From positions 7,130,001 to 7,194,000 of the forward strand of contig NC_016472.1 of assembly GCF_000226095.1 (NCBI RefSeq): DNA of 64,000 bases, in the 5' to 3' direction. A program made the translations under genes and the position numbers. Under the pieces are notes generated by a model. It saw nothing but the letters and a program-made list of their open reading frames with translations, was not told where the DNA came from and searched no databases. Shown one piece after another: positions 3,701-31,328 of the stretch. This stretch comes from Thermothelomyces thermophilus ATCC 42464 (Eukaryota; Ascomycota; Sordariomycetes; Sordariales; Chaetomiaceae). How positions within the stretch are numbered: the stretch's first letter is position 1; each line of letters begins with the position of its first letter.

Positions 3701-4201
3701 TTACGATAGGAGGAACAAGCTAAACCGCCAATAGCTGTTCTCTCCGTTAACGAATATAGAGCACTATAACTAGAGCAGTAGATTAAGATAGGAGAAATCG
3801 CTAGCATCGCTATAGACGGAACCAAGTTCGTATATTATTAGAAAGCCGAGAGACAAGACAAGACTAGGGAAGTACCGAAGGAATACAAAGGATACTTAGC
3901 ATTCGAACCGAAGCATCTAGAAGGATTACTAGAGCACGGCCTATAGGATTATAAGATCAAGCTTAAGGAAGGAGCACGATTAAAGTTCTTTAAGATTTAC
4001 TATACGAGCTAGATATAGAACGAAGAACTTAAGCGATATTTAGAGGAGAACCTTCGAAGAGGATATATCTGCCTATTGACATCGCTAGTAAGCTACCTAA
4101 TCCTGTTTATACCTAAGAAAGATAGAAAGCTATGGTTATACATCGACTATTAGCAACTTAACAAACAGACTATAAAAAACTAATACCCGTTACTGCTAAT
4201 C
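795..4201 (+). pseudogene. Element A gag, protease and start of RT (RIP-inactivated)
   Basis: The gag start codon is ATA (about 822), where B still has ATG. A retroviral-type zinc knuckle lies at about 1762-1806, recognisable by its GKKGHYKREC end, with its first two cysteines changed to Tyr (TGY to TAY). The protease active site LVDS(G)AEINLI is near 3250-3295 with Gly changed to Arg. RT follows and breaks off at 4201, where B is inserted, continuing at 11697. Dozens of TAG/TAA codons replace Gln and Trp codons. Confidence 0.9.
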
Positions 4202-4619
4202 TGTCACGGAAATATATATGTAGATGCCGCCTAGGCCACCGGCATAAACGGGCCAATCAAGCCGAAGGAACGGAAGGACTAATTATAACATAGGAAGTAT
4301 AGTAATCACTACACTTACCAGCGATTAGGGTGATCACTACCATACGATCACTTATAATCACCGTAATCAGGAGTAATCACTAGGATTATATATATATATA
4401 GATAGTCACTCGTTATAATAGACTCTAGGAGTTTACCAGTGGTAACAATTACAATTATAGTACTTATACCAAGTATTGCTAATTACTATAAGAGACAACT
4501 CTAGTATTGTTATAAACCCTTTAGCTTTACCAAATCCCTTAGACGACCTGCCTACTTATCCCACTCAATCTACCTCTATCTAGACCCTTTCAGAAGCAGT
4601 CTAAGTTAGGTTCGTCACA
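4202..4619 (+). repeat. 5' LTR of element B (418 bp)
   Basis: It runs from TGTCACGG to TTCGTCACA, the intact TG...CA form. The upstream part (about 4310-4382) holds a cluster of TGATCAC-like words. A TATA-like run follows near 4388. Its differences from the 3' LTR that I compared are nearly all C/T or G/A transitions. Confidence 0.95.
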
Positions 4620-4646
4620 CGTTATTACTACTCCCTTTGTTCTGTT

Positions 4647-7600
4647 ATGGTTCAGAACAGAGGTAACTTCGACCTCGATATCGATATGGCTACCAACGTC
4701 ACGGCCGAACAGCTGCTCGCTTAGCTTGGTCAACTCTAGCAGCGGATCTAGGAGTTGGACTAGAGAGACAAGGCTGCTTAAGCTCGAATCAAGGAACTCG
4801 AGAACCGCGAAAAGTACTTGTAGAAGTTAGTCAACGAGGCCTACACTAAAATCGAGGCACTTAAGACCGCTAAGGCAAGCTATATTAAGATCGAACTACC
4901 TAGCAAATACAGAGGAACTAAGGAGGATCTTGCAGGATTCCTAACAAACCTCTGATCTTACTTCCGGCTTAATGATGACAAGTTTCTAGACGATAAAGCC
5001 AAAGTCCTCTATATAGCTATAAGACTAGAGGGCAAGGTACTTAGATAGTTTAAGCCTACGTAGAACGACTATCTTACGGAGGAAGACAAAGACGACTGAG
5101 ACGCGTTTATATAGGTAGTCTTCCGATCTTACGACCGTTTCGAAGAAGAACTTCAGAAAGTTTTTAGCGACAAAGACGAGAAGATTTATATATAAGAAAG
5201 ACTCGCTAATCTCCGACAGACTAAGTCAGCAGCCTCCTATGCTATATAGTTTAGATAGGACATACTTAAGTCTTAGCTTAATAATAAGGCGTTAATACAA
5301 TTGTTCTATAATGGCCTAAAGTAAAAGGTTAAGGACAAGCTATATAAGTACGATCAGCCTAAGACTCTAGATAAATGTATCACACAGGCCATTAGGATCG
5401 ATAATTAACTTTACATATGAGAGTAGCAGAAACGAGGTCAAATAAACAGAACCATAATTAAGGCTAACGACAAGAAAAAGCGAGCATACATTAGTACCTT
5501 ATATAGGATGTACCCTAGAGCTATGGATATAGATATAGCGTAAAAGTAGGACTAGAAGAAGACAACCAAAGACAAGTCTAATATTACCTACTATAACTAT
5601 AGAAAGAAAGGGCACTATAAGCGAGAATGCCGAAGCCCGAAGAAAGAATAGAAACCAGCCCCTAGAAAGGAAATTATAGCTATCGACGAAACTACCAAGG
5701 ACGTCATCGAAGTAGCGGCTACAAGCTATAAAGACAAGGATAGTAATATAGATAGTCTCGGACACGACAGCAATAGTAAAGACAAATAAGCACCGTACTC
5801 CAAACTAGTCACTGTAGACCTAGAGACAGGTCTTGCCGAATGGGATACGGTAGGAGAGTATATACCGCTAATTTTGATTCTCCTAGCCTTAAGGCAATGG
5901 GGTTTTATGGTCATGTAGAGGTAGGATAAATTATAGATAACCGACACCTAAGGAATCGAAAGACCCGGACCTAATGTTCTATTCCTCTAGGAACGAATCG
6001 AATAGTACCGTAACGAAGTTTTCCGACTTAATACAGAACTACACGAACGGGATAGGCACTTGACTTAACTTGCCTAGTAGAGCGATAAGATGAAGGACGA
6101 GATAAGGGAACTCTAACGTATTATAGAAGCCCTTAAAGGAGAACAGCCTATAATATATAATAGGCCTAATAGCTATACCAAGTATCTTGATAATTAGTAA
6201 CTTAGTAACGACGTACGGAACCTAGAATACTAGTTTATACACGCGAACCACGGAAAAGACGAGCATATATAGGAAAGCTACTAGAAGAAACACTCTTATC
6301 TTAGTATTAGAGTACCTACAGCCTACGTATAGTGGGAAGGATTCGGGAAAGAATTCCAATACCTCCTAGGCGACGCTACGTAACTATACCCTCGATACAA
6401 GGCATATACGCAAGTGCCCTAGTTCTAGTGTGTGGTATACGAATGCCGATATTACTTCCGCGACAAATTCGAAAACAATCACTAGCCGACCCGACAAGGG
6501 AATGAGAACGGAAGCTTACGCCCTGTGGAATAGGTCTACAATGCAGGAAACAGAGCGGCCGAATTGCTCTAGAAGATCGAAGCCCGCGATCTAGAAGGTA
6601 TCACGATAGTTCCAAGACGAGCCTAGCCTAGGTACTGCGGAACCGGACGAGACATATAGGACTCGTACTAGAGCAATGATTGCCTCTATTATACAGACAA
6701 AAAGAAATTGCAAATTCGGGAGCTTTAGACGAAGCTATGACACGTACGACAGAAAGCAGAACGGACCTAATGGTAGGAAGCCGTAAGTACTTAATAGCTT
6801 ATAGAAATAAGTACAATTGACGAAGCTGCTATTAGCCGAATAACCGAAGAGGTTAGCACTAACCTAGGAAACGGGTCAGGGCCCTTCAAGGGGCCTAGAA
6901 ACCATTAATGCCTGCGTAGTAGCAAGTAGTAGTGTAATATAGGAAGAACTAGCATAAGAGACCACTATATCGAGACCTCCTAGTAGAAACATAGGAAATT
7001 GCTATAATCTTTAGACGACGACAGCAGGACAAGCGACTATAGATAATAGCGCAATAGAAATAGCACGAAATACTCGTACTAGTAGACAGTGGAGCAGAGA
7101 TGAACCTGATTTCGCCGACGCTTATAAATTAGCTACGGATACCCTAGAGAATAAAGTGGAAGCATAGCATAGTCAAAGGGCCATTTCCGACGTAATAGGT
7201 ATATAAGGAGACTAAACCGATCGACATTACTATAGTAGGGAAGACTATAGCAATTATATTTAGTATTATAGATATAGGCAACGACAAAGATATAATATTA
7301 GGGTTACCATAGTATAAAGATTATAATCTAGATATTAGCTAGAAGAATAGTAGCTACCTACGACCCTAAATAGAGTTATATTTGACTAGCAAGATAGAGA
7401 GCATATAAGGATCGTAAGCAGACAATGCTTAAAGAAAGGCATATCCTACGGATCCATTATAAGAGACAGACAGTGGCAGGCAGACCACTACAGACTCTAG
7501 AAGAGGTGATATAACGACATTAATATCGCGACAGGAGGAACGAGCTAAATCGCTAATAGCTATTCTCTCCGTTAACAAATACGGAGTACTGTAATTAGAG

Positions 7601-10600
7601 TAGTAGGTTAAGATAAGAGAAATCGCTAGTATCGCTATAGACAGAACCAAGTTCGTATACTATCAGAAAACCGAGAGACAAGACAAGACTAGGGAAGTAC
7701 CAAGGGAATACGAAGGACACCTAGCATTCGAACCGAAGCATCTAGAAGGATTACTAGAACACAGCCTATAGGATTACGAGATCAAGCTTAAGGAAGGGGC
7801 ATAACTGAAGTTCTTTAAGATTTACTATATAAGCTAGATATAGAATAAAGAACTTAAGCGATATTTAGAGGAAAACCTTCGAAGAGGATATATCTGCCTA
7901 TTGACATCGCTAGCAGGCTGCCTAATCCTGTTTATGCCTAAGAAAGACGGAAAGCTATAGTTATACGTTAACTATTAGTAACTTAACGAACAGACCGTGA
8001 AAAATCGATACCTGTTACCGCTAATCTTACGGCTCCGAGATTAGTTAGTAGGAGCCTAATATTTTACGTGTCTTGACTTGCTATCGGCCTATAACTATAT
8101 ATAGATCAAAGAAGGCGACGAGTAGAAAACGGCCTTTAGAATACCCTATAGCCACTACAAGTACCTCGTCATGCCATTCGGACTTATAAACACGCTAGTA
8201 ACATTCTAAGCCCTGATTAATTAAGCTATCTAACCCTTTCTTAACAAATTTGCGGTATATTATCTTAACAACATACTTATCTTCTCTAAGACGATAGACA
8301 AACACCGGAAGCACGTAGAAGCAGTACTAGACGTACTATATACGTATAAGCTATTAGTTAACAAGGAAAAGAGCGAATTCTATATTAGGAAGACAGTCTT
8401 TTTAGGATACAAGATATCCCTAGGACAAATCCAGATAGAACCTTTAAAGGTTAAAGCTATTAAGAATTAGCTACAACCGATGTTAATCACGGAAGTACGA
8501 AGCTTCATCGGATTTACAAACTTCTACCGAATGTTTATTAGGAACTTTAGAGCAATCGTACGACCTTTATACAAACTCACTAAGAAGAACGCTAAATTCC
8601 AATGGGAAGAGCAACACGAGCAAGCATTTACGTAGATCTGTAACGCTATTACTAAAGATCTAGTACTAGTACTACCAGACCCTAAGAAGCTATTCGAGGT
8701 GGAAACGGACACTTTAGACTATACTATTGGAGAACAATTAGGATAACAAGACGAACAAGGGAAGCTATATCCTATAGCCTTCTTTTCAAAGAAGCTCGAC
8801 GGACTACGTCTTAATTATCCAATTCACAACAAGGAACTACTTACGATTGTTAAAGCTTTCAAGGAATGGCAACTATATCTTAGTAGCACGATTAAACTAG
8901 TATAAGTATATACGGATCACAAGAACCTACGATACTTTACGATGACAAAGGAACTTAACGGACGACAAATACGATAGGCAGAATTCCTTATAGAATTTAA
9001 CTTCGAGATCTACTATAAGAAGGGCAAAGAAAACGTACGAGCAGACATTTTAAGTTGACGAACGGATCATACAAAAGGACAAACAGGAATAATACCACCG
9101 TTATTCAAGGAACAAACAGATGGAACGCTATATTACAAAACGCAGACACCCGTAGAAGATAATCTACTTAACTCGTTCCTAGAATACTATATAATCTTTC
9201 GAGAAGAAAGGATTAACAAGGCATAGTATCAAGCAGCACCCGGACTAGTGGTACCTGACGGAGTGGAAGAGAAAGATAGGAAACTCTGGTACCGAGGCAA
9301 AGCGTATATCTACGACAAAGACCAATAGCTATAAATGATTCGAGAACTCTATAAGTCAAAACTCGGAGGATATAAGGGAGTTACGAAGACTATCGCACAA
9401 GTCAAGAGACACTACGACTTTCTATAGTTAACGGCACAAGTTAAGGAAGTTATACGGAGCTATAATATTTGTAATCGAAGCAAAACGGCACGATACAAGC
9501 TGTATAGGCTACTTTAGCTACTGCCAATAGCTAACAAACTATAGAGTTTAGTTACGATAGACTTCATTACGAAGCTGCTAAAATCTAAGGATATAGCCAT
9601 AGGAGTAATCTACGATAGTATTCTTACTATAGTAGATTGCCTAACTAAATGGGTATACTTCTTTCCCTACAAGGAGTCCTAGATAGCTAAACAGCTGGTA
9701 GACGTAATCTATTGGCAAGTTGTATCAGTGCATGCTTGGCCGCAAGAATAGATCACCGACAGAGACACTAAGTTCGTATCGAAGTTCTAGCAAGCGTTAA
9801 TACGACGATTAGGCGTCAATAGCAAACTATTAACAGTATATTACCTACAGACTGACGGACAAACGGAACGATTGAACCAAGTTATTAAGCAATACCTCTA
9901 CTCTTACGTCAATTACTAGCAAGACGACTAGGTCATGCTGTTACCAATAGCATAACTCGCTTACAATACGACACTAACGGAAACGACCAAAGTTATACCG
10001 TTCTTCGCGAACTATAGATATAAAGCAGACCTTAGGCAAGGACTAGAGGTTATAGTGCTAAGAGCAGTAGTCAAAGCGGAACAAATGTACGTACTATATA
10101 AAAAGCTTAAAAAGGAACTCGAGTTTGTCAAGACTAGAATAAAGAACCACTATAATAAACACAGGCTCGAGGGACCTTGCCTAGAGAGGGGAGACAAAGT
10201 CTACCTAATTATATAAAACCTACGAACTAAACGACCAAATACGAAGCTAGACTTTAAGAAGGTCAGACCCTTCATTATTAAAGAACGAATTTTAATATCT
10301 AACTACCGACTATCGTTATCGTCATCTATACGACTATAGACAGATGTTTTTCATATTTCGCTTCTCGAACTAGCACCGAAAAACGCCAAGGTTGCTATAT
10401 ACATCGAAGCAAAAGACGAGGAAGAAGAATAGAACGTCGAAGAAATTCTAAATTTATACATCATTAATAGGGAACTATAGTACCTAGTCAAATAGCTTGA
10501 TTTTAGACTAGAAGACAACTTATAGGAACTAGTCAAGAACTTAAACTGCCCTAAGAAACTAGAACAGTTCTATCGGCAGAACCCGGATCGGCCAAAGGCA

Positions 10601-10650
10601 AACCTAGGATAGAACCGAAAATAGCGCCCTAGTTAATAACGTCAACGCCA
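4647..10650 (+). pseudogene. Element B gag-pol polyprotein with chromodomain (RIP-inactivated)
   Basis: Gag begins at ATG 4647, and the zinc knuckle is at 5586-5630 (GHYKREC visible). Protease (VDSGAEMNLISP) lies near 7073-7122. RT holds MPFGL at 8171 and the catalytic box near 8250-8290 as YLNN. RNase H follows near 8700-9060. Integrase shows DRDTKFVSKF near 9760 and the TDGQTERLNQ block near 9850. A chromodomain closes pol near 10430-10610 (EEILNLYI, then YLVK). Gag and the protease/RT use different frames, so either a programmed shift or decay separates them. This is the least damaged gag-pol in the nest. Confidence 0.9.
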
Positions 10651-11143
10651 CTATTAAGTTGCACGACGGCCCCTAATTCCTACTATTCTACCGCCTCCAA
10701 TTCGTCTAGATTCGACAAACCCTAAGTGACCATATCTGCCCCCTTCTCTACTAGGAACTCTCGTTATTTACAAACCCGAGTCAGATAGGCTAATGCCTTA
10801 GAAGCTTTACATTAATATTCCTGTAACAAGGCTTTGGCCTCTTTCTCTTTAGCCTTCAAACGACGTTGCTCGTATATAATACGATCTACTATATTACGAT
10901 TAGAGACGTGCCCTCGTAAGAAAATAGGAACTTATAAGAAGAAACTGGAACGCTAGAACCATTATAAGCACGACCTCGATATACGCAAGCCTTGTAGCGA
11001 CGAGATTTTTCAATCATCTTACATACTCGGTTATACTCTACGCAATGGGAACACGCTATCACTACGAACCTATGATCGGAAATAAACTAAGCCAAACGCT
11101 TACAACGAATAGACGCTAGGGATCTACACGCGTTAGATAGTAT
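10551..11143 (-). pseudogene. Antisense Zn2Cys6-like/coiled-coil gene of element B
   Basis: This two-exon gene runs opposite to gag-pol. Exon 1 is 11143-10936 (208 nt), the intron 10935-10889 (47 bp), and exon 2 10888-10551, ending in TAG; together 182 codons. The start is ATA, inferred to be a RIP-mutated ATG. Exon 1 encodes ACSHC, six residues, Cys, eight residues, Tyr, two, Cys, six, Tyr-Asn-Gly; the Tyr codons TAC/TAT fit RIP of TGC/TGT, giving Zn2Cys6 spacing. Exon 2 encodes a charged coiled coil and LDELEAVE. The intron donor is ATAAGT, one RIP change from GTAAGT. Function is unknown; a DNA-binding regulator is an inference. Confidence 0.75.
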
Positions 11144-11237
11144 AATTAATAGTACAAAGGGTAACAAGGACTAAGGAGAAAAACACGTATAAGGAATACA
11201 AGGGATATTAGCGCTATTTAAGACGGCCTAAAAAGAG

Positions 11238-11256
11238 GGCTTTCGGGTCGAAAGCC
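11238..11256 (+). other. Conserved hairpin before the 3' LTR of element B
   Basis: GGCTTTCG-GGT-CGAAAGCC is a perfect 8-bp stem with a 3-nt loop. It is followed by a purine-rich run, the likely polypurine tract, directly before the LTR at 11274. The same hairpin occurs at the same place in A, C and F. Confidence 0.8.
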
Positions 11257-11273
11257 TTAGAGGGAGGGCATCG

Positions 11274-11691
11274 TATCACGGAAATATGTATATAGATGCC
11301 GCCTAGGCCACCGGCACAAATAGGCTAATTAAGCCGAAGGAACGGAAGGACCAATTATAATATAGGAAGTATAGTGATCACTACACTCACTAGCGATCAG
11401 GGTAATCACTACCATATAATCACTCACGATTACCATGATTAGGAGTGATCACTAGGATTATATATACATGTAGATAGTTACTTATTATAATAGACTCTAG
11501 GAGTTTACTAGTAGTAACAATCACAATTACAGTACTTATACCAAGCATTGCTGATTACTGTGAGAGACAACTCTAGTGTTGTTGTGAACCCTTTGGCTTT
11601 ACCGAATCCCTCAGACGACCTGCCTGCTTGTCCCGCTCAATCTACCTCCGTCTAGACCCTTTTAGAAGCAGTCTGAGTTAGGTTCGTCATA
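11274..11691 (+). repeat. 3' LTR of element B (418 bp)
   Basis: It starts TATCACGG (TG changed to TA) and ends TTCGTCATA. GATCAC-type words cluster at about 11373-11456. The duplicated TAATC follows directly. Confidence 0.95.
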
Positions 11692-11696
11692 TAATC

Positions 11697-14330
11697 TCAT
11701 AGCTCCAAGATTAGTTGGTAGGAGCTTAATATTTTATATATCTTAACTTGCTATCGGCCTATAACTATATACGGATCAAAGAAGGCGACGAGTAGAAAAC
11801 GGCCTTTAGGATACCCTATAGCTACTATAAGTACCTTATCATGCCATTTAAACTAATGAACGCGCTAGTAACGTTCTAAGCCCTAATTAATTAAGCTGTC
11901 CGACCCTTTCTTAATAAATTTACAGTATATTATCTCGACGATATACTTATCTTCCCCAAAACAATAGACAAACACCGGAAGTACGTAAAAGTAATATTAG
12001 ACACGTTATATATATATAAGCTATTAGTTAACAAGGAAAAGAGTAAATTCCATATTAGGAAAACGGTATTTTTAGGATATAAAATATCCCTAGGACAAAT
12101 TCGGATAGAACCCTTAAAGGTTAAAGCTATTAAGGATTAGCTACGACCGACGTTAGTTACGGAAGTACAAAGTTTCATCAGGTTTACGAACTCCTACCAG
12201 ATATTCATTAGGAACTTTAGAGCGATCGTATAACCTTTATACGAACTTACTAAGAAGAACGCTAAATTCTAATGGGAAGAGTAATATAAGTAAGCATTTA
12301 CGTAGATCTACGACGCCATTACTAAAGATCTAGTACTAGTGCTACTAGACCCTAAGAAGCCATTTAAGATAGAAACGGACGCTTTAAACTATGCTATTAG
12401 AGGACAATTAGGATAACGAGATAAACAAGGGAAGCTATATCCTATAGCCTTCTTTTTAAAGAAGCTTAATAGACTATGTCTTAATTATCTAATCTATAAT
12501 AAGGAACTACTTACAATTGTCAAAGCTTTTAAGGAATAGCGACTATACCTTAGTAGCACGATCGAACTAGTATAAGTATATACAGATTATAAGAATTTAC
12601 AATACTTTACAATAATAAAGGAGCTTAACAGATAGTAAATATAATAGATAGAATTCCTTACAGAATTCAATTTCAAGATCTGCTATAAGAAGGGCAAAGA
12701 GAACGTACAAGCAGACGCCTTGAGCCGATGAACGGATTATATAGAAGGACGAATGGAAATAACGCCACCGTTATTCAAGGAACGAATAGACGGAACGCTA
12801 TATTACGAAATGTAGATACCTATAGAAGATAATCTACTTAACTTATTCCTAGAATGTTACGTAATCTTTCGAGAAGAAAGGATCAATGAGGTATAGTATT
12901 AAGTAACACCTGGACTAGTAGTACCTGACAGAGTGGAAGAAAAAGATAGGAAACTCTAGTACCAAGGTAAAGTATATATCTACGATAGGGATCAATAGCT
13001 ATAAATGATTCGAGAACTCTACGAATCGAAACTTGAAAGATACAAAGGAGTTATAAAGACTGTTGTATAAGTCAAGAAACACTACGACTTTCTATAGTTA
13101 ACGATACGAGTTAAGAAAGTTATATAGAGCTATGACATCTGCAATTAAAGCAAAATGGCATAATACAAGCTATATAGGCTACTTTAGCCACTGCTAACGG
13201 CTAATAAACCATAGAGTTTAGTTATAATAGACTTTATTACGAAACTACTAGAATCTAAGGACATAGCTATAGAGGTAATCTATAATAATATTCTTACTAT
13301 AGTAGATCGCCTAACTAAATAGGTATACTTCTTTCCTTATAAGGAGTCCTAGATAGTTAAATAGCTAGTAGATGTAATCTATCGGCAAGTCGCATTAGTA
13401 TACGCTTAGCTATAGGAATAGATTACCGATAGAGATACCAAGTTTGTATCAAAGTTCTAGCAAGCGTTAATATAACAATTAGGCGTCAATAGCAAGCTAT
13501 TAACGGCATATTACCTATAGACTAACAGACAAATGGAGCGACTAAACTAAGTTATCAAGTAGTACCTCCGTTCTTATATTAACTACTAATAAGACAACTA
13601 GGTTATGCTATTACCAATAGTATAACTCGCTTACAATATAACGCCAACAGAAACAACCAAAGTCACACTATTCTTCGTAAACTATAGATATAAAGCAGAC
13701 CTTAGGCAAGGACTAGAGGTCATAGTGCCGAGAGCAGCAGTCAAAGCAGAACAAATGTACGCACTACACGAGAAGCTCAAAAAGGAACTTAAGTTTGTTA
13801 GAACTAGAATAAAGAACTACTACAACAAACATAGGCTCGAGGGACCTTGCCTAAAGAGGGGAGACAAAGTCTACCTAATTATATAAAACCTACGAACCAA
13901 ACGACCAAGTATAAAGCTAGACTTTAAGAAGGTTAGACCCTTTATTATCAAAGAACAAATCTCGATATCTAACTACTAACTATTATTACTATTATCTATA
14001 TGACTATAGACGGATATTTTTTATATTTTGCTTCTCGAACTAGTACCGAAGAATGCTAAGGTTACTATATATATCGAAGTAGAGGACGAAGAGGAAGAAT
14101 AAGACGTCAAAGAAATCCTAGATTTATATATTATCAATAGAGAACTGTAGTACCTGGTCAAATAGCTCGATTTTAGACTAGAGGATAACTTATAGGAACT
14201 AGTTAAGAATTTGAACTGCCTTAAGAAACTAGAATAGTTCTACTAGCAGAACCTAGATTAACTAAAGGCAAAACTAGGATAGAATCGAAGACGGTGCCCT
14301 AGTTAACAACGCTACCATTAAGCTATACAC
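11697..14330 (+). pseudogene. Element A pol, second part: RT, RNase H, integrase, chromodomain
   Basis: The RT frame broken at 4201 continues here. The MPF motif is near 11839, and the catalytic box near 11930-11960 reads YLDD. RNase H and integrase follow; the GVNSKLLT and DGQTER-type blocks near 13480-13540 are visible but interrupted by stops. The chromodomain (EILDLYI, then YLVK) is near 14110-14180. Stops replace Gln and Trp codons throughout. The end of pol overlaps the antisense gene. Confidence 0.88.
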
Positions 14331-14846
14331 CCAGAACCGCCCCCGATTCCTACTGCTCCATCTCTTCTAATTCATCCAAAGACGCAAGACCCTAGCAAAC
14401 CATCTCCGACCCTCGAGATAATAACGATCGCTTTTGACGACGAATATAGTCTAAACGAGCTAGAGACTCGTCCAGACGACACTACGCTTTTACCAACAAA
14501 TCGCGGTCAGTATAGAGAGCCTCCTTAGCATCTTACTCTAATTGGTCGAGGCGCTTTAATTCGTCTATAATACAGGATACTATAGAAGTTAGTATAGGAA
14601 AAATATACTAACAAGGGAACACTAACAAGACAAGACTAGAACCCTAGAACCGTTATATAACCTCCTATGACGAATATATTCGCTATAACGAGAAGAATTC
14701 TCTATCATATGGCAGCAGAGGCCGCGAGAAAAACAAAAAGAACAAGGCATTACTTCGAACCCTAGCTCGTTAATGGCAGTAGCCAGGGCAATACGCTCCT
14801 CGGTCTTCACAGACCTTTTTATCAAACACTTTACTATACGAGACAT
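14221..14846 (-). pseudogene. Antisense Zn2Cys6-like/coiled-coil gene of element A
   Basis: Exon 1 (14846-14627) starts with ATG and is open for 73 codons. It encodes MPCSFC, then Cys after six residues, and Tyr at the last three cysteine positions, followed by NGS. A 47-bp intron (14626-14580) has a GTTAGT donor, TACTAAC branch site and TATAG acceptor. Exon 2 (14579-14221) gives a coiled coil with IIDELKRLDQLE and LASLDELEEME, ending in TAA. The spliced length is 193 codons and the frame is kept through the splice. TAG codons in exon 2 fit RIP of CAG. It resembles no enzyme I know. Confidence 0.78.
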
Positions 14847-14932
14847 ATTGTCAGCAGTATACAGAAGAAAGAGGGAAACACAGGAGACAACTTACTAAGG
14901 GTTGTTAGCGCTATTTGAAATGGCCTGAGATA

Positions 14933-14951
14933 GGCTTTCGGGTCGAAAGCC
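14933..14951 (+). other. Conserved hairpin before the 3' LTR of element A
   Basis: This is the same perfect 8-bp stem (GGCTTTCG / CGAAAGCC, loop GGT) as in B and C, between the antisense gene's start and the polypurine tract. Confidence 0.8.
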
Positions 14952-14968
14952 TTGAAGGAGGGGCATCG

Positions 14969-15390: not shown

Positions 15391-15395
15391 TATAT

Positions 15396-18070
15396 TAACT
15401 ATTAGTAACTTAACAAATAGACCGTAAAAAACTAATACCTATTACTATTAATCTTACGGCTCTAAGATTAGTTAGCAGGAGCCTAATATTTCACGTGTCT
15501 TGACTTGCTATTAGCCTATAACTATATATAGATCAAAGAAGGTAACGAGTAGAAAACGGCCTTTAGGACACCCTATAGCTACTATAAGTACCTTGTCATG
15601 CCATTCGGACTTACAAACACGCTAGCAACATTCCAAGCCCTAATTAATCAAGCTATCCGACCCTTTCTCGACAAATTTACAGTATATTATCTCGATAATA
15701 TACTTATCTTCTCTAAGACGACGGATAAATACCGGAAGCACGTAAAAGTAGTGCTAGACGCGCTACACATATATAAGCTATTAGTTAATAAGGAAAAGAG
15801 CGAATTCTATATTAGGAAGACAGTCTTTTTAGGATACAAAATATCCCTAGGATAAATCCGGATAAAACCTTCAAAGGTTAAAGCTATCAAGAATTAGCCC
15901 TAGCCGACATTAATTATAGAAATACGAAGTTTCATCAGATTTACGAACTTCTACTAAATGTTTATTAGGAACTTTAGAGCGATCGTATAACCTTTATATG
16001 AACTTACTAAGAAGAATGCTAAATTCTAATAGGAAGAGTAATACGAGTAAGCGTTTATATAAATCTACGATGCTATTACTAAAGATCTAGTATTAGTACT
16101 ACTAGATCCTAAGAAGCTATTCGAGGTAGAAACGGACGCTTTAGATTACGCCATTAGAGGACAATTAGGATAACGAGACGGACAAGGAAAGCTATATCCT
16201 ATAGCTTTCTTTTTAAAGAAGCTCGATAGACTACGTCTTAATTATCTAATCTATAATAAGGAACTACTTATAATTGTCGAAGCTTTTAAGGAATAGCAAT
16301 TATACCTTAGTAGTATAATTGAACTAATATAAGTATATATAGATTATAAGAATTTACAATACTTTACGACGACAAAGGAGCTTAATAGATAACAAATATA
16401 ATAGGCAGAATTCCTCGCGAAATTTAACTTTAAGATTCGCTATAAGAAAGGCAAAGAGAACGTACGAGCAGATATCTTAAGCCGACGAATGGATTATACG
16501 GAAGGACAAACGGAAATAATACTACCGTTATTTAAGGAACAAACAGATAGAACACTACATTACAAAACATAGATACTTATAGAAGATAATTTACTTAACT
16601 TATTCCTAGAATATTATATAATCTTTCGAGAAGAAAAGATTAATAAGATATAGTATCAAGTAGCACCCGGATTACTAATACCTAACAAAGTAGAAGAAAG
16701 GGATAGGAAACTCTAGTACCAAGGCAAAGCGTATATCTATAATAAAGATCAATAGCTACAGATAATTTAAGAACTCTACGAGTCGAAACTCAAAGGATAT
16801 AAAGGAGTCACGAAGACTGTTATATAAGTTAAGAAACACTACGACTTTCTATAGTTAATAGTACGAGTTAAGGAAGTCGTATAGAACTATAACATTTATA
16901 ATCGAAGCAAAACAGCACGACACAAGCTATATAGGCTACTTTAGCCACTACTAATAGCTAACAAACTATAGAGCTTGGTTACGATAGACTTTATTATAAA
17001 GCTACTAGAATCTAAGGATACGGCTATAGGAGTGATCTACGATAGCATCCTCACTATAGTAGATCGCCTAACTAAATAGATATACTTCTTTCCCTACAAA
17101 GAATCCTAGATAGCTAAACAGCTAGCAGACATAATCTATCGGCAAGTTACATTAGTATATACTTAGCCACAAGAATAGATTACTAATAGAGATACCAAGT
17201 TCGTATTAAAGTTCTAGCAAGCATTAATATAACGATTAGGCGTTAATAGTAAGCTATTAATGGCATATTACCTACAGACTAACAGACAAACGGAGCAACT
17301 AAACTAAGTTATCGAGTAGTATCTCCGTTCTTACGTTAACTACTAGCAAAATAACTAAGTCATGCTATTGCTAACAGTATAACTCGCTTATAACACGACA
17401 CTAACGGAAACAACCAAAGTTATACCGTTCTTTACAAACTATAGATATAAAGTAGACCTTAGGCAAAGACTAGAGGTCATAGTACTAAGAGCAATGGTCA
17501 AAGCAAAACAGATATACACACTATATAAGAAACTCAAAAAGGAACTCGAGTTTGTTAAGACTAGAATAAAGAACTACTACGATAAATATAGGCTTAAGGG
17601 ACCTTGCCTAGAGAGGGGAGACAAAGTCTACCTAATTATATAAAATTTATAAACCAAACGACTAAGCATAAAGCTAGACTTTAAAAAGGTTAGACCCTTC
17701 GTTATCAAAGAACGAATTTCGACATCTAACTACCGACTATTGTTACCGTTATCTATATACCTATAGACAGATGTTTTTTATATTTCACTTCTCGAACTAG
17801 CACCAAGAAACACCAAGGTTACTATATATATTAAAGCAAAAGACGAGGAAGAAGAATAGGATGTCAAAGAAATTCTAGATTTATATATCATTAACAAGGA
17901 ATTATAGTATCTGGTCAAATAGCTCGATTTTAGACTAGAAGATAACTTATAGGAACTAGTCAAGAACTTAAACTACCTTAGGAAACTAGAATAGTTCTAT
18001 CGGCAGAACCCGGATTAGCTAAAGGCAAACCTGGGACAGAACCGAAAATAGCGCCCTAGTTAATAATGTT
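15396..18070 (+). pseudogene. Element C pol, second part (RIP-inactivated)
   Basis: An 85-codon open stretch at 15598-15855 covers the RT palm: MPFGL, then YYLDNILIFS, so the second catalytic Asp is Asn (GAC to AAC or GAT to AAT, a RIP-type change). RNase H, integrase and a chromodomain (EILDLYI near 17868) follow with many stops. The open piece is a fragment of dead pol and should not be annotated as a gene. Confidence 0.88.
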
Positions 18071-18570
18071 AACGCTACCGTTAAATTACATAACAGCCCC
18101 TAATTCCTACTATTCTACTACCTCTAATTCGTCTAGATTTAATAGACCCCGTATAACTATATCTGCCCCCTTCTCTACTAGGAACTCTCGTTATTTACGA
18201 ACCCGAGTTAGATAGGCTAATGCCTTAGAAGCTTTATATTAATATTCTCGTAGCAAGGCTTCAGCCTCTTTCTCTTCAGCCTTTAAATGACATTACTCGC
18301 GTATAATACGATCTACTACGTTACGATTAGAGATATACCCTTACAAGGAAACAGGAACTTACAAGAAGAAACTAAAACGCCGGAATCATCGTAAGCACGA
18401 CCCTAATACATATAAGCCTTATAGCAACGAGATTTTTTAATCATTTTATACACTCGGTTATACTCTATATAATAGGAATATACTATCACTATAAACCCGT
18501 AATCGGAAATAAACTAAGCTAAACGCTTATAACGGATAAACGCTAGGAATCTATATACGTTAGATAGTAT
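17978..18570 (-). pseudogene. Antisense Zn2Cys6-like/coiled-coil gene of element C
   Basis: Exon 1 is 18570-18363 (start ATA, RIP form of ATG), the intron 18362-18316 (47 bp) and exon 2 18315-17978 ending in TAA. This copy keeps an intact GTAAGT donor, a CGTAAC branch-like site and a TAG acceptor. Only one metal-ligand Cys survives (in SRCYKA); the others read Tyr at exactly the expected spacing. Exon 2 gives LDRIIRE and a charged helix rich in Glu and Lys. Exon lengths are identical to those in B. Confidence 0.72.
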
Positions 18571-18663
18571 AATTAATAGTACGAAGGGTAATAAGAGGCT
18601 AAGGAGAAAAACATATATAAGAAGCGTAAGAGATGTTAGCACTATTTAAAATGACCTAAAGAG

Positions 18664-18682
18664 GGCTTTCGGGTCGAAAGCC
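18664..18682 (+). other. Conserved hairpin before the 3' LTR of element C
   Basis: The stem GGCTTTCG / CGAAAGCC with loop GGT is identical to those in A and B and lies just before the polypurine run and the LTR. Confidence 0.8.
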
Positions 18683-18699
18683 TTAGAGGAAGGGTATCG

Positions 18700-23382: not shown

Positions 23383-23722
23383 TATAGGCGATTAGTATAT
23401 ATCTCCTTATACTTATAGAAACCGTAGGTATAATGGTAATAACAGGAGTTAGTGCCAGAATGATCGCGATATTCGCCGAAAGAACGTCTTGCTAGAGCCG
23501 ACCGTATATACATTCCGTAAGGCACCTTGCAAAGCTTGCCAATAGTAATGTCACTATATTTAGTTAGCTCGAACGATCTTAATACGACTAGCAAAGCGCT
23601 AGGAAACGGCAAAATTAGCAGAGACAATAGGAACACTTATAGTTTAAAAGCTAGTTTAGAAGCTTTAGTACGCTTATACTTTTAAGGTATTATAAAAGCA
23701 GGAGTTAACCTGCTAGCAATGG
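23383..23722. other. Left flank of element F: unidentified decayed sequence
   Basis: This AT-rich stretch ends with AATGG, the target duplicated by F. It was joined to 31334 before F inserted. On the + strand a mostly open frame crosses the restored junction (about 23490-23722 into 31334-31440), and on the minus strand 86 codons are open (23636-23376). Neither gives a family I recognise. Confidence 0.5.
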
Positions 23723-24176
23723 TATGACAAACCTAACTTAGACTTCTTCTAAAAGGGTTCAGACGGAGGTAAATTAAGCGGGACAAGCGTACAGGTTGTC
23801 TAAGGGATTTGGTATAGCCAAAGGGTTCATAACAACACTAGAGTTGTCTCCTATAATAGTCGGTAATACTTGGTATAAGTACTTGTGATTATAGGTTAGG
23901 TTACTATCACTAGTAAACTCCCAAAGTCTACTATAACGAGTGACTAGCTAGCTATATATATATAATTATCTGTCCCTCTTCAATAGTTATTACTAGTACC
24001 ATTTCTCCTTTTACTCTGTGATTCTGCGTTATTAACGGTAATATGTTATTATTACTAGTGAAGACCTTAGTCTTGGTAGTGATAATCTTCTGATTAGTCT
24101 GTTAAGTGATTAGCTATTAGAATGTCCTATGTCCTGGCTATAGCCTGCTAGGCTGTCTATATACTTATCCGTGACA
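23723..24176 (-). repeat. 3' LTR of element F (454 bp)
   Basis: On the minus strand it starts TGTCACGG (ends at 24176) and ends TTTGTCATA. It is more heavily mutated than its partner at 30875-31328, notably over 24050-24176. Confidence 0.95.
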
Positions 24177-24193
24177 TGATGCCCTTCCTTTAA

Positions 24194-24212
24194 GGCTTTC
24201 GACCTAAAAGCC
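24194..24212 (-). other. Hairpin before the 3' LTR of element F, partly decayed
   Basis: On the minus strand it reads GGCTTTTA-GGT-CGAAAGCC. It is the same hairpin as in A-C with two transitions in one arm, at the same place relative to the LTR. Confidence 0.7.
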
Positions 24213-24303
24213 CTCTTAGGCCGTTTTAAATAGCGCTAATAACCCTTTGCTTGTAAGTACTACATTCTTCCTATTTCTACGTTATAGTTGCCTTATTAAC
24301 AAA

Positions 24304-24945
24304 ATGCCGATAGAGAAACGGAAGTCGTATTCTATATATTACTATACTTCCCTTACTTAGAATATCGCTAAGAACGGTTTTATCGTTATGCCTTGCTCTT
24401 GGTGCGCGTCGCAAGGCCTCGTCTACAAAATGATCACGCGTACGAAGCGTTACGAAGCCTACGTTTGTCGAGGTCATTCTTATAATAGCTCTAGTATACC
24501 ACTTTCTTCCTATAAGCACGTCTCCTTTGTTTTTTTTTTTTTTTAAATGTGATTCTTAATGTTTATTCTAGTAGATTATATTCTCTAGAAGTAACGTCGT
24601 ATTAAGGATGCTAAATATCGTGCCGAACTTGAGCTAGATAAATCCTAACGCTATCTAGAAGAAGCCTAGCACGAGTTGTCCAAAAAGCTTACATGGCTCC
24701 GGCGTCTTTATCAGTAGAAGGAGTTTTTAGTAGAGAAAGGTACCGATATAGTGACACGTAGTCTGTCGACCTTAGACGAGTTAGAGGAGGTTAAGCGGCA
24801 AGAGTAGCAAGAGGTGCCTATTATACCCTTATTACAGATTAATAATGCTATTAATGCTATTGACTAAGGCGCTATCTTTAGTTCTATCCTAGGTTTTTCT
24901 TTAGTTAATCCGGGTTCTGCTAGTAGAACTGTTCTAGTTTCTTAG
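24304..24945 (+). pseudogene. Antisense Zn2Cys6-like/coiled-coil gene of element F
   Basis: This gene is on +, opposite to F's gag-pol. Exon 1 (24304-24511) starts with ATG and encodes MPCSWC, then Tyr after six residues, eight residues to YEAY, and Tyr-Asn-Ser after six more. A 60-bp intron (24512-24571) carries a run of about 17 T; its donor reads ATAAGC (RIP form of GTAAGC) and its acceptor CTAG. Exon 2 (24572-24945, TAG) gives a long charged coil (AELELDKS, EEAQHELSKKL) and LSTLDELEEVKRQE. Spliced length is 194 codons in frame. The exon-1 length, 208 nt, equals that in B and C. Confidence 0.78.
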
Positions 24946-27900
24946 AGCAGTTTAAATTCTTGACTAGTTCCTATAAGTTATCCTCTAGTCTAAAATTAAG
25001 CTATTTAACTAGATATTATAGTTCCCTATTAATAATATATAAGTCTAGAATTTCTTTGACGTCCTATTTTTCCTCTTCGTCCTTTGCTTCGATATCTATA
25101 ACAACCTTAGCGTTCTTTAGTGCTAGTTCGAGAAGTGAAATATAAAAGACGTCTATCTGTAGTCGTATAGATGACGGTAACGATAGTTGGTAGTTAGATG
25201 TCGAAATTCGTTCTTTGATAACGAAGGGTCTAACCTTTTTAAAGTCTAGCTTCGTGCTTAGTCGTTTGGTTCGTAGGTTTCGTGCGATTAGGTAGACTTT
25301 GTCTCCCCTCTCTAGGTAAGGTCCCTTGAGCCTATGTTTGTTATAGTAGTTCTTTATTCTAGTTCTGACAAACTTAAGTTCCTTTTTAAGCTTCTTATAT
25401 AGTATATATATTTGTTCTACTTTGACTACTGCTCTCGGCACTATAACCTCTAGTCCTTGCCTAAGGTTTACTTTATATCTGTAGTTTGCGAAGAACAGTA
25501 TAACTTTGGTTATTTCCGTTAGCATTATATTATAAGCAAGTTATACTATTAGTAATAGTATGACCTAGTCGTCTTACTAGTAGTTAATGTAAGAATGGAG
25601 GTACTACTTGACAACTTAGTTTAGTCGCTCCGTTTGTCCGTCGGTTTGTAGGTAATATGCTATTGACAGCTTGCTATTAATGCCTAATTGTTACATTAAC
25701 GCTTGCCAGAACTTTGATGCGAACTTGGTATCTCTGTTGGTGATCTATTTCTATGGCCAAGTGTATACTAATACAACTTGCCGATAGATCACGTCTACTA
25801 ACTGTTCCGCTATCTAGGACTCCTTATAGGGAAAGAAGTATACCTATTTAGTTAGGCGGTCTACTATAATAAGAATACTATCATAGATTACCCCTATAGC
25901 CGTGTCTTTAGATTCTGGCAGTTTCGTAATAAAGTCTATCGTAACTAAACTCTATAGTTTGTCGGCTATTAATAGTAGCTAAAGTAGCCTATATAGCTTG
26001 TATCGTGCCGTTTTGCTTTAATTGTAGATGTTATAGTTCTATACGACTTCCTTGACTTATATCGTTAACCATAGAAAGTCGTAGTGTTTTTTAACTTGTA
26101 TAATAGTCTTTATAACTCCTTTATATCCTCCGAGTTTTAACTTATAGAGTTCTTAAATCATTTGTAGCTATTGATTTTTATCGTAAATATACGCTTTACC
26201 TCAGTACTAGAGTTTCCTATCTTTTTCTTCTACTCCATTAGGTACTACTAGTCTAGGTATTGCTTAATACTATACCTTATTGATCCTTTCTTCTCGAAAG
26301 ATTATATAACATTCTAGGAACGAGTCAAGTAGGTCATCTTCTATAGGTATCTACGTTTCGTAATATAGCATTCCGTCTATTCGTTCCTTGAATAACGGTG
26401 GCATTATTTCTGTTTATCCTTCCATATAATCCGTTTGTCAGCTTAAGGCGTCCGCTTGTACATTCTCTTTACCCTTCTTATAGCATTACAAAATTAAATT
26501 CTGTAAGGAATTCTACCTATTGTATTTGTCGTCCGTTAAGCTCCTTCGTCATCGTAAAGTATCGTAAATTCTTATAATCTGTATATACTTATATTAGTTC
26601 GATCGTGCCGCTAAGGTATAGTCGCTATTCCTTAAAGGCTTTAATAATTGTAAGTAGTTCCTTATTATAGATCGGATAATTGAGATATAGTCTATCGAGC
26701 TTCTTTGAAAAGAAGGCTATAGGATATAGCTTCCCTTGTTTATCTTATTATCTTAATTATCCTCCGATGGTATAGTCTAAAGCGTCTGTTTCTACCTTAA
26801 ATGGCTTCTTAAGGTCTAGTAGTACTAGTACTAGATCTTTAGTAATGGCGTTACGGATCTATATAAATACTTGCTTGTGTTGCTCTTCCTATTAGAATTT
26901 AGCGTTCTTCTTAGTAAGTTTGTATAAAGGTCGTATAATCGCTCTAAAGTTCCTAATAAACATCCGGTAGAAGTTTGTAAACCTGATGAAACTTCGTACT
27001 TCCGTAACTGACGTCGGTCGTAGCCAATCCTTAATAGCTTCGACCTTTAAAGGTTCTATCCGGATTTATCCTAGGGATATCTTATATCCCAAAAACACCG
27101 TCTTCCTAACGTGGAATTTGCTCTTTTCCTTATTAACTAATAGCTTATATATATATAATATATCTAGTACTACTCTTATATACTTCTAGTATTTGTCTAT
27201 CATTTTAGAGAAGATAAGTATATCGTCGAGATAATATACTGCAAATTTGTCAAGAAAGGATTAGATAGCTTGATTAATTAGGGCTTAGAACGTTACTAGT
27301 ACATTTGTAAGTCTAAATAGCATGACAAGGTACTTGTAATGGCTATAGGGTATTCTAAAGGCTATTTTCTACTCGTTACCTTCCTTGATCTATATATAGT
27401 TGTAGGCCGATGGCAAGTCAAGACGTATAAAATATTAGGTTCCTACTAACTGATCTTAGAGCCGTGAGATTAGTGGTAACGGGTATCGGTTTTTTATAGT
27501 CTATTCGTTAAGTTACTAATAGTTAACGTATAACTATAGTTTTCTGTCTTTCTTAGGTATAAATAGGATTAGGTAGCCTACTAGCGATGTCGATAGGCGG
27601 ATATATCCTCTTTAAAGATTCTCCTCTAAGTATTGCTTAAGTTTTTCATTCTATATCTAACTTATATAGTAAATCTTAAAGAACTTTAGTTATACTCCTT
27701 CCTTAAGCTTGATCTTATAATCCTATAGGCTGTATTCTAGTAATCCTTCTAGATACTTCGGTTTAAATGCTAGGTGTCCTTTATATTCCTTTAGTACTTT
27801 CCTAGTCTTATCTTGTTTCTTGGCTTTCTAATAGTATACAAACTTAGTTCTATCTATAGCGATACTAGTAATTTCTCCTATCTCAACCTACTACTCTAAT

Positions 27901-30850
27901 TACAGTGCTCTACATTCGTCAACGGAGAGAATAGCTATCGGCGATTTAGCTCGTTCCTTCTATCGCAACGTTAGTATCGTTACGCCGCTTTTTCTAGAGT
28001 CTATAGTAGTCTGCCTGCCACTATCCATCTCTTACGGCAGATCTGTAGGACATGCCTTCCCCTAAGCATCGTCTGCTCGCGATCTTTACATGCTCCCTAT
28101 CTTGCTAGTCAAATATAACTCTATTTAGGGTTATAGGTAGTTACTATTCTTCTAGCTAATATCTAGGTTATAATCTTCATACTATAGTAATCCTAATATT
28201 ATGTCTTTATCGTTACTTATATCTATAATACTAAATATAACTACTATAGTTTTCCCTACTATAGTAATATCGATTAGTTTAGTCTCCTTATATACCTATT
28301 ATATTAGAAATAGCCCTTTGACTATACTATACTTCTGCTTTATTCTCTAGGGTATCTGTAGCTAATTTACAAGTGTTAGCAAAATTAGGTTTATCTCTGC
28401 TTTACTATCTACTAGTATAAGCATTTCGTGCTATTTCTATTGTGCTGTTGTCTATAATCGCTTATCTTGCCACTGTCGTTCAAAGATTGCGGCAATTTCC
28501 TATGTTTCTGCTAGGAGGTCTTAATATAGTGGTCTCTTATACCAGTTCCTCTTATACTATGCTACCACTTGCTGCTATATAGGCGTTAATGGTTTTTAAG
28601 CCCCTCGAAGGGCCCTGACCCGTTTCCTAGGTCAATACTAATCTCTTCGGTTATTTGGCTAATAGCGGCTTTATCGATTGTGTTTATTTCTATAAGCTAT
28701 TAAGTGCTAGTAACTTCCTACTATTAGGTCCATTTTACTTTCTATCGTATATACTATAGCTTTATCTAAAGCTCTTAGATCCGCAATTTCTTTTTGTCTA
28801 TATAGTAGAGGTAGTTATTACTTTAGCACAAGTCCTATATGTCTCGTCCTATTCCGTAGTACCTAGGCTAGGCTCGTTTTAGTACTACTATAATGCCTTT
28901 TAGATCGCAGGCTTCGATTTTCTAAAGCAATTCGGCCGCTCTATTTCCTACATTATAGACCTATTCTATAGGGCAGAGGCTTCTATCCTTATTTCCTTAT
29001 CAGGTTAGCTAGTAATTGTTTTCGAATTTATTACGAAAGTGGTATCGGCATTTGTATACCATACACTAGAACTAGGGCACTTGTACATATACCTCGTGTC
29101 AAGGGTATAGTCGCGTAGCATCGCCTAGGAGGTATTAGAACTCTTTCCCAAATCCTTCCCACTATACGTAGACTATAGATACTCTAATGCTAAGGTAGGA
29201 GTATTTCTTCCAGTAGTTTTCCTATGTACGTTCGTCTTTTCTACGGTTCGCACGTATAAACTAGTACTTAGGGTTCTATATATTATAGCTAAGTTGCTAA
29301 TCGTTAGAATACTTAGTATAGCTATTAGGCCTATCGTATATCATAGGCTGTTCCCTTTTAATGGTTTCTATGATACGTTAGAGTTCCCTTATCTTGTCCC
29401 TTATCTTATTACTCTACTAGGTAAGTTAAATCAAGCGTCTATCCTATTCGCGTAGTTTTATATTAAGCTAGAATACTTTGTTATAGTATTATTTAATTCG
29501 TTCCTAGAGGAATAGAACATTAGGTCTAGGTCTTTCGATTCCTTAGGTATCGGTCGTCTATAATCTATCCTACCTCTAGGTAATTATAAAACCCTACTGC
29601 CTCAAGGCTAGGAGAATCGAAATTAGTAGTATATATTCTTTTACCGTATCCCATTCGGCAAGACCTATTTCTAGGTCTATAGTAACTAGTTCGGAGTATA
29701 GTACTTGTTTGTCCTTACTATTACCGTCGCGTCTAAGACTATCTATATTACTATCCCTATTCTTATAGCTTGTAGCCGCTACTTCAATAACATTCTTAGC
29801 GGTTTCGTTAATAGCTATAATTTCCTTCCTAGGGACTAGTTTCTAGTCTTTCTTTAGGCTTCGATATTCTCATTTATAGTATCCTTTCTTTCTATAGTTA
29901 TAGTAGATAACGTTAGACTTGTCTTTAGCCGTCTTCTTCTTATCTTCCTTCTATGCTATGTCTATATCTATAGCTCTAGGATACGTCCTATACAATATAC
30001 TAATATATACTCGTTTTTTCTTATTATTAGCCTTAACTATAGTTCTATTTATCTAACCTTATTTCTATTACTCTTGTATATAAAGTCGATTATTAATTCT
30101 AATAGCCTATATAATATATTTGTCCAGGGTCTTAGGCTAGTTATACTTATATAGTTTATCTTTAACCTTTTCCTTTAAGCTATTATAGAATAGTTATATT
30201 AACGCCTTATTGTTAAGCTAAGACTTAAGTATATCCTATCTAAACTATATAGTATAAGAGGCTACTAACTTAGTCTATTAGAGATTAGTAAGTCTTTCTT
30301 ATATATAAATTTTCTTATCTTTATTGCTAAAAACCTTCTAAAGCTCTTCTTCAAACTAGTCATAGGATCAAAAGACTGCCTATATAAATACGTCTTAGTC
30401 GTCTTCGTCTTCCTTAGTAAGATAGTTATTCTATATAGGCTTAAACTATCTAAGTACCTTACCCTCCAGTCTTATAGCTATATAGAGGACTTTAGCTTTA
30501 TCATCTAAAAACTTATTATCATTAAGCTAAAAGTAAGATCAGAGGTTTATTAGGAATCCTACAAGATCTTCCTTAGTTCCTCTATATTTACTAGGTAGTT
30601 CGATCTTAATACGGCTCGCTTTAGCGCCCTCGAGTGCCTTGATTTTGGTATAGGCCTCATTAACTAGCTTCTACAAATGCTTTTTACCATTTTCGAGTTC
30701 CTTAATCTAAGCTTAAGTAACCTTATCTCTCTAGTCTAACTCCTAAATCTATTACTAGAGTTGACCGAGCTAGGTAAGTAGCTATTTAGCTATAACGTTA
30801 GTAGCTATATTAATATCAAGGTCAAAATCACCTCTATTCTAAGCTATAAT
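24946..30850 (-). pseudogene. Element F gag-pol polyprotein with chromodomain (RIP-inactivated)
   Basis: The gag start is ATA near 30847 and the zinc knuckle at about 29912-29868. The protease motif ILVDS(G)AEINLI lies near 28430-28380, with RT, RNase H and integrase to its left. The longest open piece (25525-25064, 153 codons) is the integrase C-terminus: LERGDKVYLIARNL and VFYISLLELA, leading into the chromodomain. The antisense gene's stop lies just beyond the chromodomain. The whole is interrupted by RIP stops. Confidence 0.88.
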
Positions 30851-30874
30851 AGAATAAAGGGAGTAATAGTAATG

Positions 30875-31328
30875 TATAACGAACCTAACTTAGACTTCTT
30901 CTAAAAGGGTTCAGACGGAGGTAAATTAAGCGGGACAAGCGTATAGGTTATCTAAGGGATTTGATAAAGCCAAAGGGTTTATAATAATACTAGAGTTGTC
31001 TCTTACAATAGTTAATAATACTTGGTATAAGTACTTGTGATTATAGGTTAGGTTACTATCATTGGTAAACTCCTAGAGTCTACTATAACGAGTGACTAGC
31101 TAGCTATATATATATAATTATCTGTCCCTCTTTAATAGTTATTACTAGTACTATTTCTCCTTTTACTCTGTGATTCCGTGTTGTCGACGGTGACATGTTA
31201 TTATCACTAGTGAAGACCTTAGTCTTGGTAGTGATAATCTTCTGATTGGTCCGTCAAGTGATTGGCTGTTGGAATGTCCCGCGTCCTGGCTACAGCCTGC
31301 CGGGCCGTCCATGTGCTTATCTGTAACA
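30875..31328 (-). repeat. 5' LTR of element F (454 bp)
   Basis: Minus orientation. Its last 130 bp on the + strand (about 31195-31328) are visibly GC-richer and less mutated than the same part of the partner LTR, while the rest is similarly mutated. The edge facing unique DNA thus seems to have been partly spared by RIP. Confidence 0.95.

What the first reader, a model, noticed from the sequence alone, without database searches (positions are those of the whole stretch)
10551..11143. Antisense accessory gene with Zn2Cys6 spacing in all four chromovirus copies
Between pol and the 3' LTR, on the strand opposite to gag-pol, A, B, C and F each carry the same gene (14846-14221, 11143-10551, 18570-17978, 24304-24945). 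Seen directly: spliced lengths 193, 182, 182 and 194 codons; a module C-x2-C-x6-C-x8-C-x2-C-x6-C in which every lost Cys is Tyr (TGY to TAY, RIP type); then a charged coiled coil and a LDELE motif. The spacing fits the fungal Zn2Cys6 cluster (established knowledge). I infer a retrotransposon-encoded regulator made from antisense transcripts. I vaguely recall similar cysteine-rich hypothetical proteins scattered in ascomycete genomes but cannot verify this.
Basis: partly seen in the sequence, partly recalled or inferred. Interest (0 to 1): 0.88.

Follow-up and report, generated by a model that had tools for sequence, protein, structure and literature searches.

The report
Antisense zinc-cluster gene in fungal retrotransposons
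Jumping genes in a heat-loving mould carry, on their opposite strand, a real and still intact gene for a small protein that looks like a fungal gene-switch protein, so these elements probably regulate themselves.

Summary
All four chromovirus copies carry the antisense gene at the stated coordinates, split by a phase-1 intron at one position. The genome is Thermothelomyces thermophilus. Its 18 F-type loci with a full pol frame all keep both antisense exons open; a second lineage, G, keeps a strongly diverged antisense gene at 15 of 15. Open copies and database homologues carry the full six-Cys module. Homologues occur in Sordariomycetes and Leotiomycetes. Four of four gene models tested end in tails that read antisense to pol. 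Outside the pol overlap, F-A and F-B transversions favour third positions; A-B do not significantly. The module matches almost only solved Zn2Cys6 chains, but never significantly, and stays below the Pfam cut-off wherever I saw a score. Most likely it is a dimeric DNA-binding regulator of its own element; expression, target and sign are unshown. Antisense genes at this position are already known (Boty brtn, plant aORF-3R, HTLV HBZ). New, as far as my searches reach: the zinc-cluster identity, the breadth, and strong divergence beside a near-constant pol.

The parts
10533..10888 (-). copy B antisense gene, exon 2 (linker, coiled coil, LDELE); RIP-type stop at 10551, conserved family stop ends at 10533; 3' part overlaps pol
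   Evidence: family stop from open copies
10889..10935 (-). copy B intron, 47 nt; donor now AT (RIP type), CTAAT branch-like site, acceptor TAG
10936..11143 (-). copy B antisense gene, exon 1 with the six-Cys module
11238..11256 (.). conserved palindrome GGCTTTCG-GGT-CGAAAGCC between antisense gene start and 3' LTR of B
   Evidence: 389 sites within 1 mismatch in the genome, 0 for the reversed control
11274..11691 (+). 3' LTR of B (ends approximate)
14203..14579 (-). copy A antisense gene, exon 2 (RIP-type stop at 14221, family stop ends at 14203)
14580..14626 (-). copy A intron, 47 nt
14627..14846 (-). copy A antisense gene, exon 1 with the six-Cys module
14933..14951 (.). palindrome of A
17960..18315 (-). 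copy C antisense gene, exon 2 (RIP-type stop at 17978, family stop ends at 17960)
18316..18362 (-). copy C intron, 47 nt, GTAAGT donor
18363..18570 (-). copy C antisense gene, exon 1; all six Cys positions now Tyr
18664..18682 (.). palindrome of C
24194..24212 (.). palindrome of F, mutated
24304..24511 (+). copy F antisense gene, exon 1 (element F lies on the - strand)
24512..24571 (+). copy F intron, 60 nt with poly-T tract; donor now AT
24572..24963 (+). copy F antisense gene, exon 2 (RIP-type stop at 24945, family stop ends at 24963)
23722..31328 (-). element F, full length by similarity
   Evidence: blastn to an open F-type element

Best explanation
It is an accessory gene of a chromodomain Ty3/Gypsy lineage, read from the strand opposite gag-pol. 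It starts about 120 nt inside the 3' LTR boundary and ends inside the 3' end of pol. In lineages A, B/C and F a short phase-1 intron interrupts it; lineage G has none. The product, about 190-215 residues, has a Zn2Cys6-like zinc cluster, a short linker, a long helix suited to dimerisation, and a low-confidence, probably disordered tail with a D-W motif. Shown: gene, intron signals, conservation, openness in recently moved copies. Supported by sequence: antisense position in other genera. Inferred: antisense mRNA from a promoter at the 3' LTR, splicing, dimer binding to DNA, and regulation of the element's own LTR, either as a brake (as HBZ does) or as an activator. I lean to self-regulation through sites in or next to the LTR: repeated motifs in U3, or the palindrome beside the polypurine tract.
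For: Open antisense gene beside 18 of 18 F-type and 15 of 15 G-type loci, that is, all loci with a pol frame of 700 aa or more among the 150 scored. LTR pairs 99.8-100% identical in the 5 F-type loci measured. Transversions by codon position F-A 47/28/68 (p 0.0003), F-B 29/19/45 (p 0.0019); pS 0.75 against pN 0.38 for F-A. Three Cys columns invariant and three at 90% or more in 45 aligned homologues. Phase-1 intron at one place in A, B, C and F; in three open F copies its length is 66, 69 or 76 nt while the protein is identical. Tails of Chaetomium, Corynascus (two) and Staphylotrichum models match the reverse strand of pol. AlphaFold gives a helix from residue 67 to 150 or to 132. Palindrome in 15 of 15 loci scanned, all chosen for having the antisense gene, and by eye in G with a paired change.
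Against: No expression data. Zn_clus below its cut-off where scores were seen: 4 of 10 rescanned proteins match, best 16 bits of 21; best E over 45 members 0.0011; none for P0001 or the G protein. All structural and PDB-sequence matches are individually insignificant; with the second model only 1 of 3 Foldseek rows is Zn2Cys6 and the top VIA row is BusR. Third-position excess is not significant for A-B (38/28/42, p 0.13) and dS is saturated. The A, G and F U3 motifs lack the CGG triplets usual for this class (recalled). U3 similarity does not significantly follow antisense-protein similarity (rho 0.33, p 0.23, 15 pairs). D-lineage U3 shows no significant repeat and H's is mostly TA repeats. 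No control without the antisense gene was made for the palindrome.
Confidence: 0.58

Rival explanations
1. The antisense protein is not an LTR regulator but helps a later step, such as bringing the pre-integration complex to chromatin or packaging RNA; the zinc module binds nucleic acid without sequence choice.
For: Nuclear accessory roles of this sort are discussed for plant aORF-3R proteins (PMC7264820, passages). U3 and antisense protein do not significantly co-vary. The basic second arm suits general nucleic-acid binding.
Against: A zinc cluster followed by a dimer helix is the layout of sequence-specific fungal regulators (recalled); the gene sits at the 3' LTR on its own strand.
Confidence: 0.2
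2. The main function is the antisense RNA: transcription through pol makes double-stranded RNA or blocks sense transcription, and the protein is secondary.
For: Antisense transcripts alone are proposed as possible regulators for plant elements (PMC7264820, passages). The gene converges on and overlaps pol.
Against: Codon-phased conservation and conserved cysteines outside the pol overlap point to a protein.
Confidence: 0.1
3. It is a captured host Zn2Cys6 gene, a passenger with no role for the element.
For: The module resembles host factors.
Against: Open at 33 of 33 loci with a pol frame of 700 aa or more, in two lineages; tails antisense to pol in other genera; two classes.
Confidence: 0.06
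4. Chance ORF opposite repetitive DNA, made by RIP or base bias.
For: RIP makes and breaks ORFs; another long antisense frame lies opposite gag.
Against: Homologues in other genera, conserved cysteines and intron position.
Confidence: 0.01

Closest known systems
brtn of Boty-like retrotransposons, Botrytis cinerea (Zhao et al. 2011, Virology 417:248; paper not held, known here from its title in reference lists and from passages of PMC7264820, PMC8365987 and PMC4227169)
   Same: additional antisense gene between pol and 3' LTR of a fungal Ty3/Gypsy element
HBZ of HTLV-1 (PMC10186651, passages)
   Same: antisense gene at the 3' LTR, spliced form, transcription-factor-type protein with a dimerising helix
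   Different: bZIP, not zinc cluster; lowers expression from the 5' LTR, which is untested here; no homology claimed
Plant aORF-3R proteins: Grande gene23, Retand TRP28 (PMC7264820 and PMC11963269, passages)
   Same: antisense ORF between pol and 3' LTR, nuclear or predicted DNA-binding, function unknown
   Different: other protein families; Retand is not a chromovirus
Fungal Zn2Cys6 binuclear-cluster regulators (Gal4, Leu3, Put3, Hap1, Cep3)
   Same: six-Cys spacing, then linker and predicted helix
   Different: no room for the usual large middle domain (recalled); more Lys/Arg in the second loop than the first in 43 of 49 members; below Pfam cut-off where seen

Membership tests
Fungal Zn2Cys6 cluster (PF00172) | six Cys as C-x2-C-x6-C-x5..12-C-x2-C-x6..8-C (consensus recalled) | tested here: met
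   strict C-x2-C-x6-C-x8-C-x2-C-x6-C in 31 of 58 proteins of 150 aa or more, looser spacing in 46 of 58; lineages G (x7) and D (x8) deviate in the first loop
Fungal Zn2Cys6 cluster (PF00172) | score above Pfam's curated cut-off of 21 bits | tested here: not met
   Zn_clus in 4 of 10 rescanned proteins, best 16 bits; 22 of 45 members at E 1 or less, best E 0.0011, bits not shown for those
Fungal Zn2Cys6 cluster (PF00172) | zinc-cluster fold | tested here: inconclusive
Fungal Zn2Cys6 cluster (PF00172) | binds zinc and DNA | not testable with these tools
   needs purified protein
Antisense accessory genes of LTR elements (brtn, aORF-3R) | antisense ORF between pol and 3' LTR, kept in intact copies | tested here: met
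brtn family proper | sequence homology to Botrytis brtn | not tested
   brtn sequence not at hand; paper not held
HBZ-like antisense regulators | lowers expression of the element's own LTR | not testable with these tools
   no expression or reporter data
Chromovirus (chromodomain Ty3/Gypsy) | RT, RNase H, integrase, C-terminal chromodomain | tested here: met
   three pol pieces of L036: RVT_1 1.5e-38, RT_RNaseH 7.5e-40, rve 7.3e-8, Chromo 3.3e-14

The most novel reading that the evidence does not exclude
A family of retrotransposon-encoded, arm-swapped zinc-cluster regulators works like the immunity region of temperate phages: each lineage carries its own antisense regulator and matching U3 operators, swapped by recombination onto one nearly constant pol and R-U5 backbone, so that lineages sharing a nucleus escape or impose each other's control.
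Probability: 0.17. Interest if true: 0.88.

Novelty: new variant of a known kind. Interest (0 to 1): 0.62.

Why it matters
Short hypothetical proteins of many ascomycetes are here tied to a retrotransposon gene. A self-encoded regulator in an element with intact copies, in a mould that is not a pathogen (recalled), would make the open question of what antisense accessory genes of LTR elements do directly testable, in parallel with HBZ and the plant aORFs.

Tried and rejected

Rows chosen or dropped: alignment A3 uses 45 of the 80 proteins held; A4 uses ten pieces chosen for having the module; one search tested 4 proteins in which I had seen C-terminal extensions, not all 80; the loci were chosen for the antisense gene; lists are limited to 150 scored candidates; the p-values come from pairs that share lineages and are not independent.

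Full report
1. Where it is. The window is C1:7130001-7194000 of a 38.7 Mb, 7-contig genome. Hits named MYCTH_ come from contigs of 4127677 and 5454242 bases, the lengths of C6 and C2, so the genome is Thermothelomyces thermophilus ATCC 42464. The first 32 kb are AT-rich and hold chromovirus copies: by blastn, B sits inside A, A inside C, and F lies inverted further on.

2. Observation. Each has two reading blocks that join at one phase-1 position. Donors are GT in A and C and AT in B and F, a RIP-type change; acceptors are AG. Branch-like sites CTAAC or CTAAT are seen in A, B and C; the F relic has a mutated one, open F copies CTGAT, A-type copies CTGAC. Introns are 47 nt in A, B and C and 60 nt in F. 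Of 24 Cys positions, 9 are Cys and 15 Tyr (by eye). The relics hold 6 to 9 earlier stops, and the family stop is 18 nt beyond the quoted one.

3. Intact relatives in the same genome. A database search with the F relic found P0001, 196 residues with all six Cys. Eighteen loci have the coiled-coil exon without stops at 99% identity and the zinc exon without stops. They are the same 18 loci that have a 1264-residue pol frame. Five were read with their LTRs: 448 to 451 bp, 99.8-100% identical; pol open in all five; gag open in four, split in L038; antisense gene convergent with pol. Three A-type loci have LTR identities of 98.3-100%; each has at least one stop in the antisense frame. A second lineage, G, at first looked as if it lacked the gene: its 15 loci (pol frames of 706 to 1287 residues) are not among the listed rows. 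Reading one (L056) showed an unspliced 212-residue antisense ORF with the module C-x2-C-x7-C-x9-C-x2-C-x7-C; one search found it open at 15 loci, all beside those pol frames. So 33 of 33 loci with a pol frame of 700 aa or more keep the gene. As these copies moved recently, openness alone does not prove function.

4. Selection. Outside the pol overlap, F-A transversions fall 47/28/68 on codon positions 1/2/3 (p 0.0003), F-B 29/19/45 (p 0.0019), A-B 38/28/42 (p 0.13, not significant). Nei-Gojobori F-A gives pS 0.75 and pN 0.38, with dS saturated. RIP makes transitions (established knowledge), so transversions are the safer count.

5. Homologues elsewhere. An alignment search gave 79 proteins at E 0.1 or less, 8000 candidates scored: Chaetomium, Canariomyces, Corynascus, Staphylotrichum, Verticillium, Cordyceps, Metarhizium, Apiospora, Xylariaceae, Pseudogymnoascus and others, and many unnamed metagenome proteins. 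Verticillium is in Sordariomycetes, Pseudogymnoascus in Leotiomycetes. Three carry a UniRef name beginning Zn(2)-C6 fungal-type. In 45 aligned members Cys 50, 53 and 60 are invariant and Cys 31, 34 and 41 reach 90%. Four gene models with C-terminal extensions (Chaetomium globosum, two Corynascus similis, Staphylotrichum tortipilum) were compared with the 3' end of the T. thermophilus pol: all four tails match its reverse strand (E 3e-6 to 5e-15 against an 840-base target, 37-58% identity). The match is in another frame than the antisense gene itself, so the models probably run on through a predicted splice. I infer that there, too, the gene runs into pol from the opposite strand.

6. What the protein looks like. 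Zn_clus is the commonest Pfam match (22 of 45 members at E 1 or less, best 0.0011) but below its cut-off where I saw scores: 4 of 10 proteins, best 16 of 21 bits; P0001 and the G protein have no Zn_clus row. A profile of the zinc module alone matched nine PDB sequences up to E 10, all Zn2Cys6 proteins (Leu3, LAC9, GAL4, CBF3 subunit B), best E 0.077. The family's first arm aligns best with the second arm of Leu3 and LAC9, and Lys/Arg are more frequent in the second loop than the first in 43 of 49 members with the module. The cluster may be arm-swapped (inference). After it come a helix of 84 or 66 residues and a low-confidence tail with Trp in 32 of 39 and Asp in 31 of 43 rows at the D-W motif. 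That motif lies inside the pol overlap, so its conservation may partly be pol's.

7. Regulatory surroundings. A palindrome, GGCTTTCG-GGT-CGAAAGCC, lies about 80-95 nt before the antisense start and next to the polypurine tract. It was found in 15 of 15 loci scanned with a slightly degenerate pattern, in the window copies, and by eye in G with a paired substitution. The genome has 389 sites within one mismatch and 0 for the reversed control; I did not check that all lie in elements. U3 regions carry lineage-specific repeated motifs: in A, GGATCAC three times and GTGATCC or GTGATCT three times, both at 34-nt steps; in G, GATCGC five times forward and once reversed; in F, GGTGATAA twice and TTATCACC once. 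Against 300 shuffles, A and G are significant at k 6 to 8, F at k 8 (p 0.003) and weakly at k 7, B at k 6 and 8, H mostly through TA repeats, D not. R-U5 shows no such repeats.

8. Mosaic. F and G share 94.2% of nucleotides in the pol piece and 97.7% in R-U5, but 39% of residues in the antisense protein; blastn finds no match between L036 7568-8185 and the G antisense gene. Divergence at the pol rate cannot explain this; recombination, either of the antisense block or homogenising pol, is the likely cause (inference). U3 similarity over 15 lineage pairs does not significantly follow the antisense protein.

9. Function. Shown: gene, intron signals, conservation, position. Inferred: antisense transcript, dimeric DNA binding, self-regulation. 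HBZ is the closest mechanism (PMC10186651, passages); brtn the closest in kind.

Noticed in passing
window 2-19103: Three-deep nesting: B (about 4173-11691) sits in the RT region of A, and A in the RT region of C, at element positions about 60 nt apart; flanks of four of five open F-type copies read also look like older copies.
   Followed up: partly
L035 2186-2935 (-), also L036, L037, L039; shorter in L040, L041: Another long antisense frame (250 codons) lies opposite gag in F-type copies; it may only reflect base bias.
   Followed up: no
A-type LTR, L040: U3 array GGATCAC...GTGATC(C/T), three units at 34-nt steps, upstream of a TATA-like stretch.
   Followed up: partly
F-type antisense intron (L035, L036, L038): Intron length 66, 69 or 76 nt through a poly-T tract between copies with identical protein; where it is a multiple of three the frame stays open through the intron.
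   Followed up: partly
window 36521-40123: ORFs that I read by eye as leucine-degradation genes (carboxyltransferase, acyl-CoA dehydrogenase) lie just beyond the repeat block.
   Followed up: no
L056 1593-4642: The G copy read here is followed directly by older, mutated element sequence with its own antisense gene.
   Followed up: no
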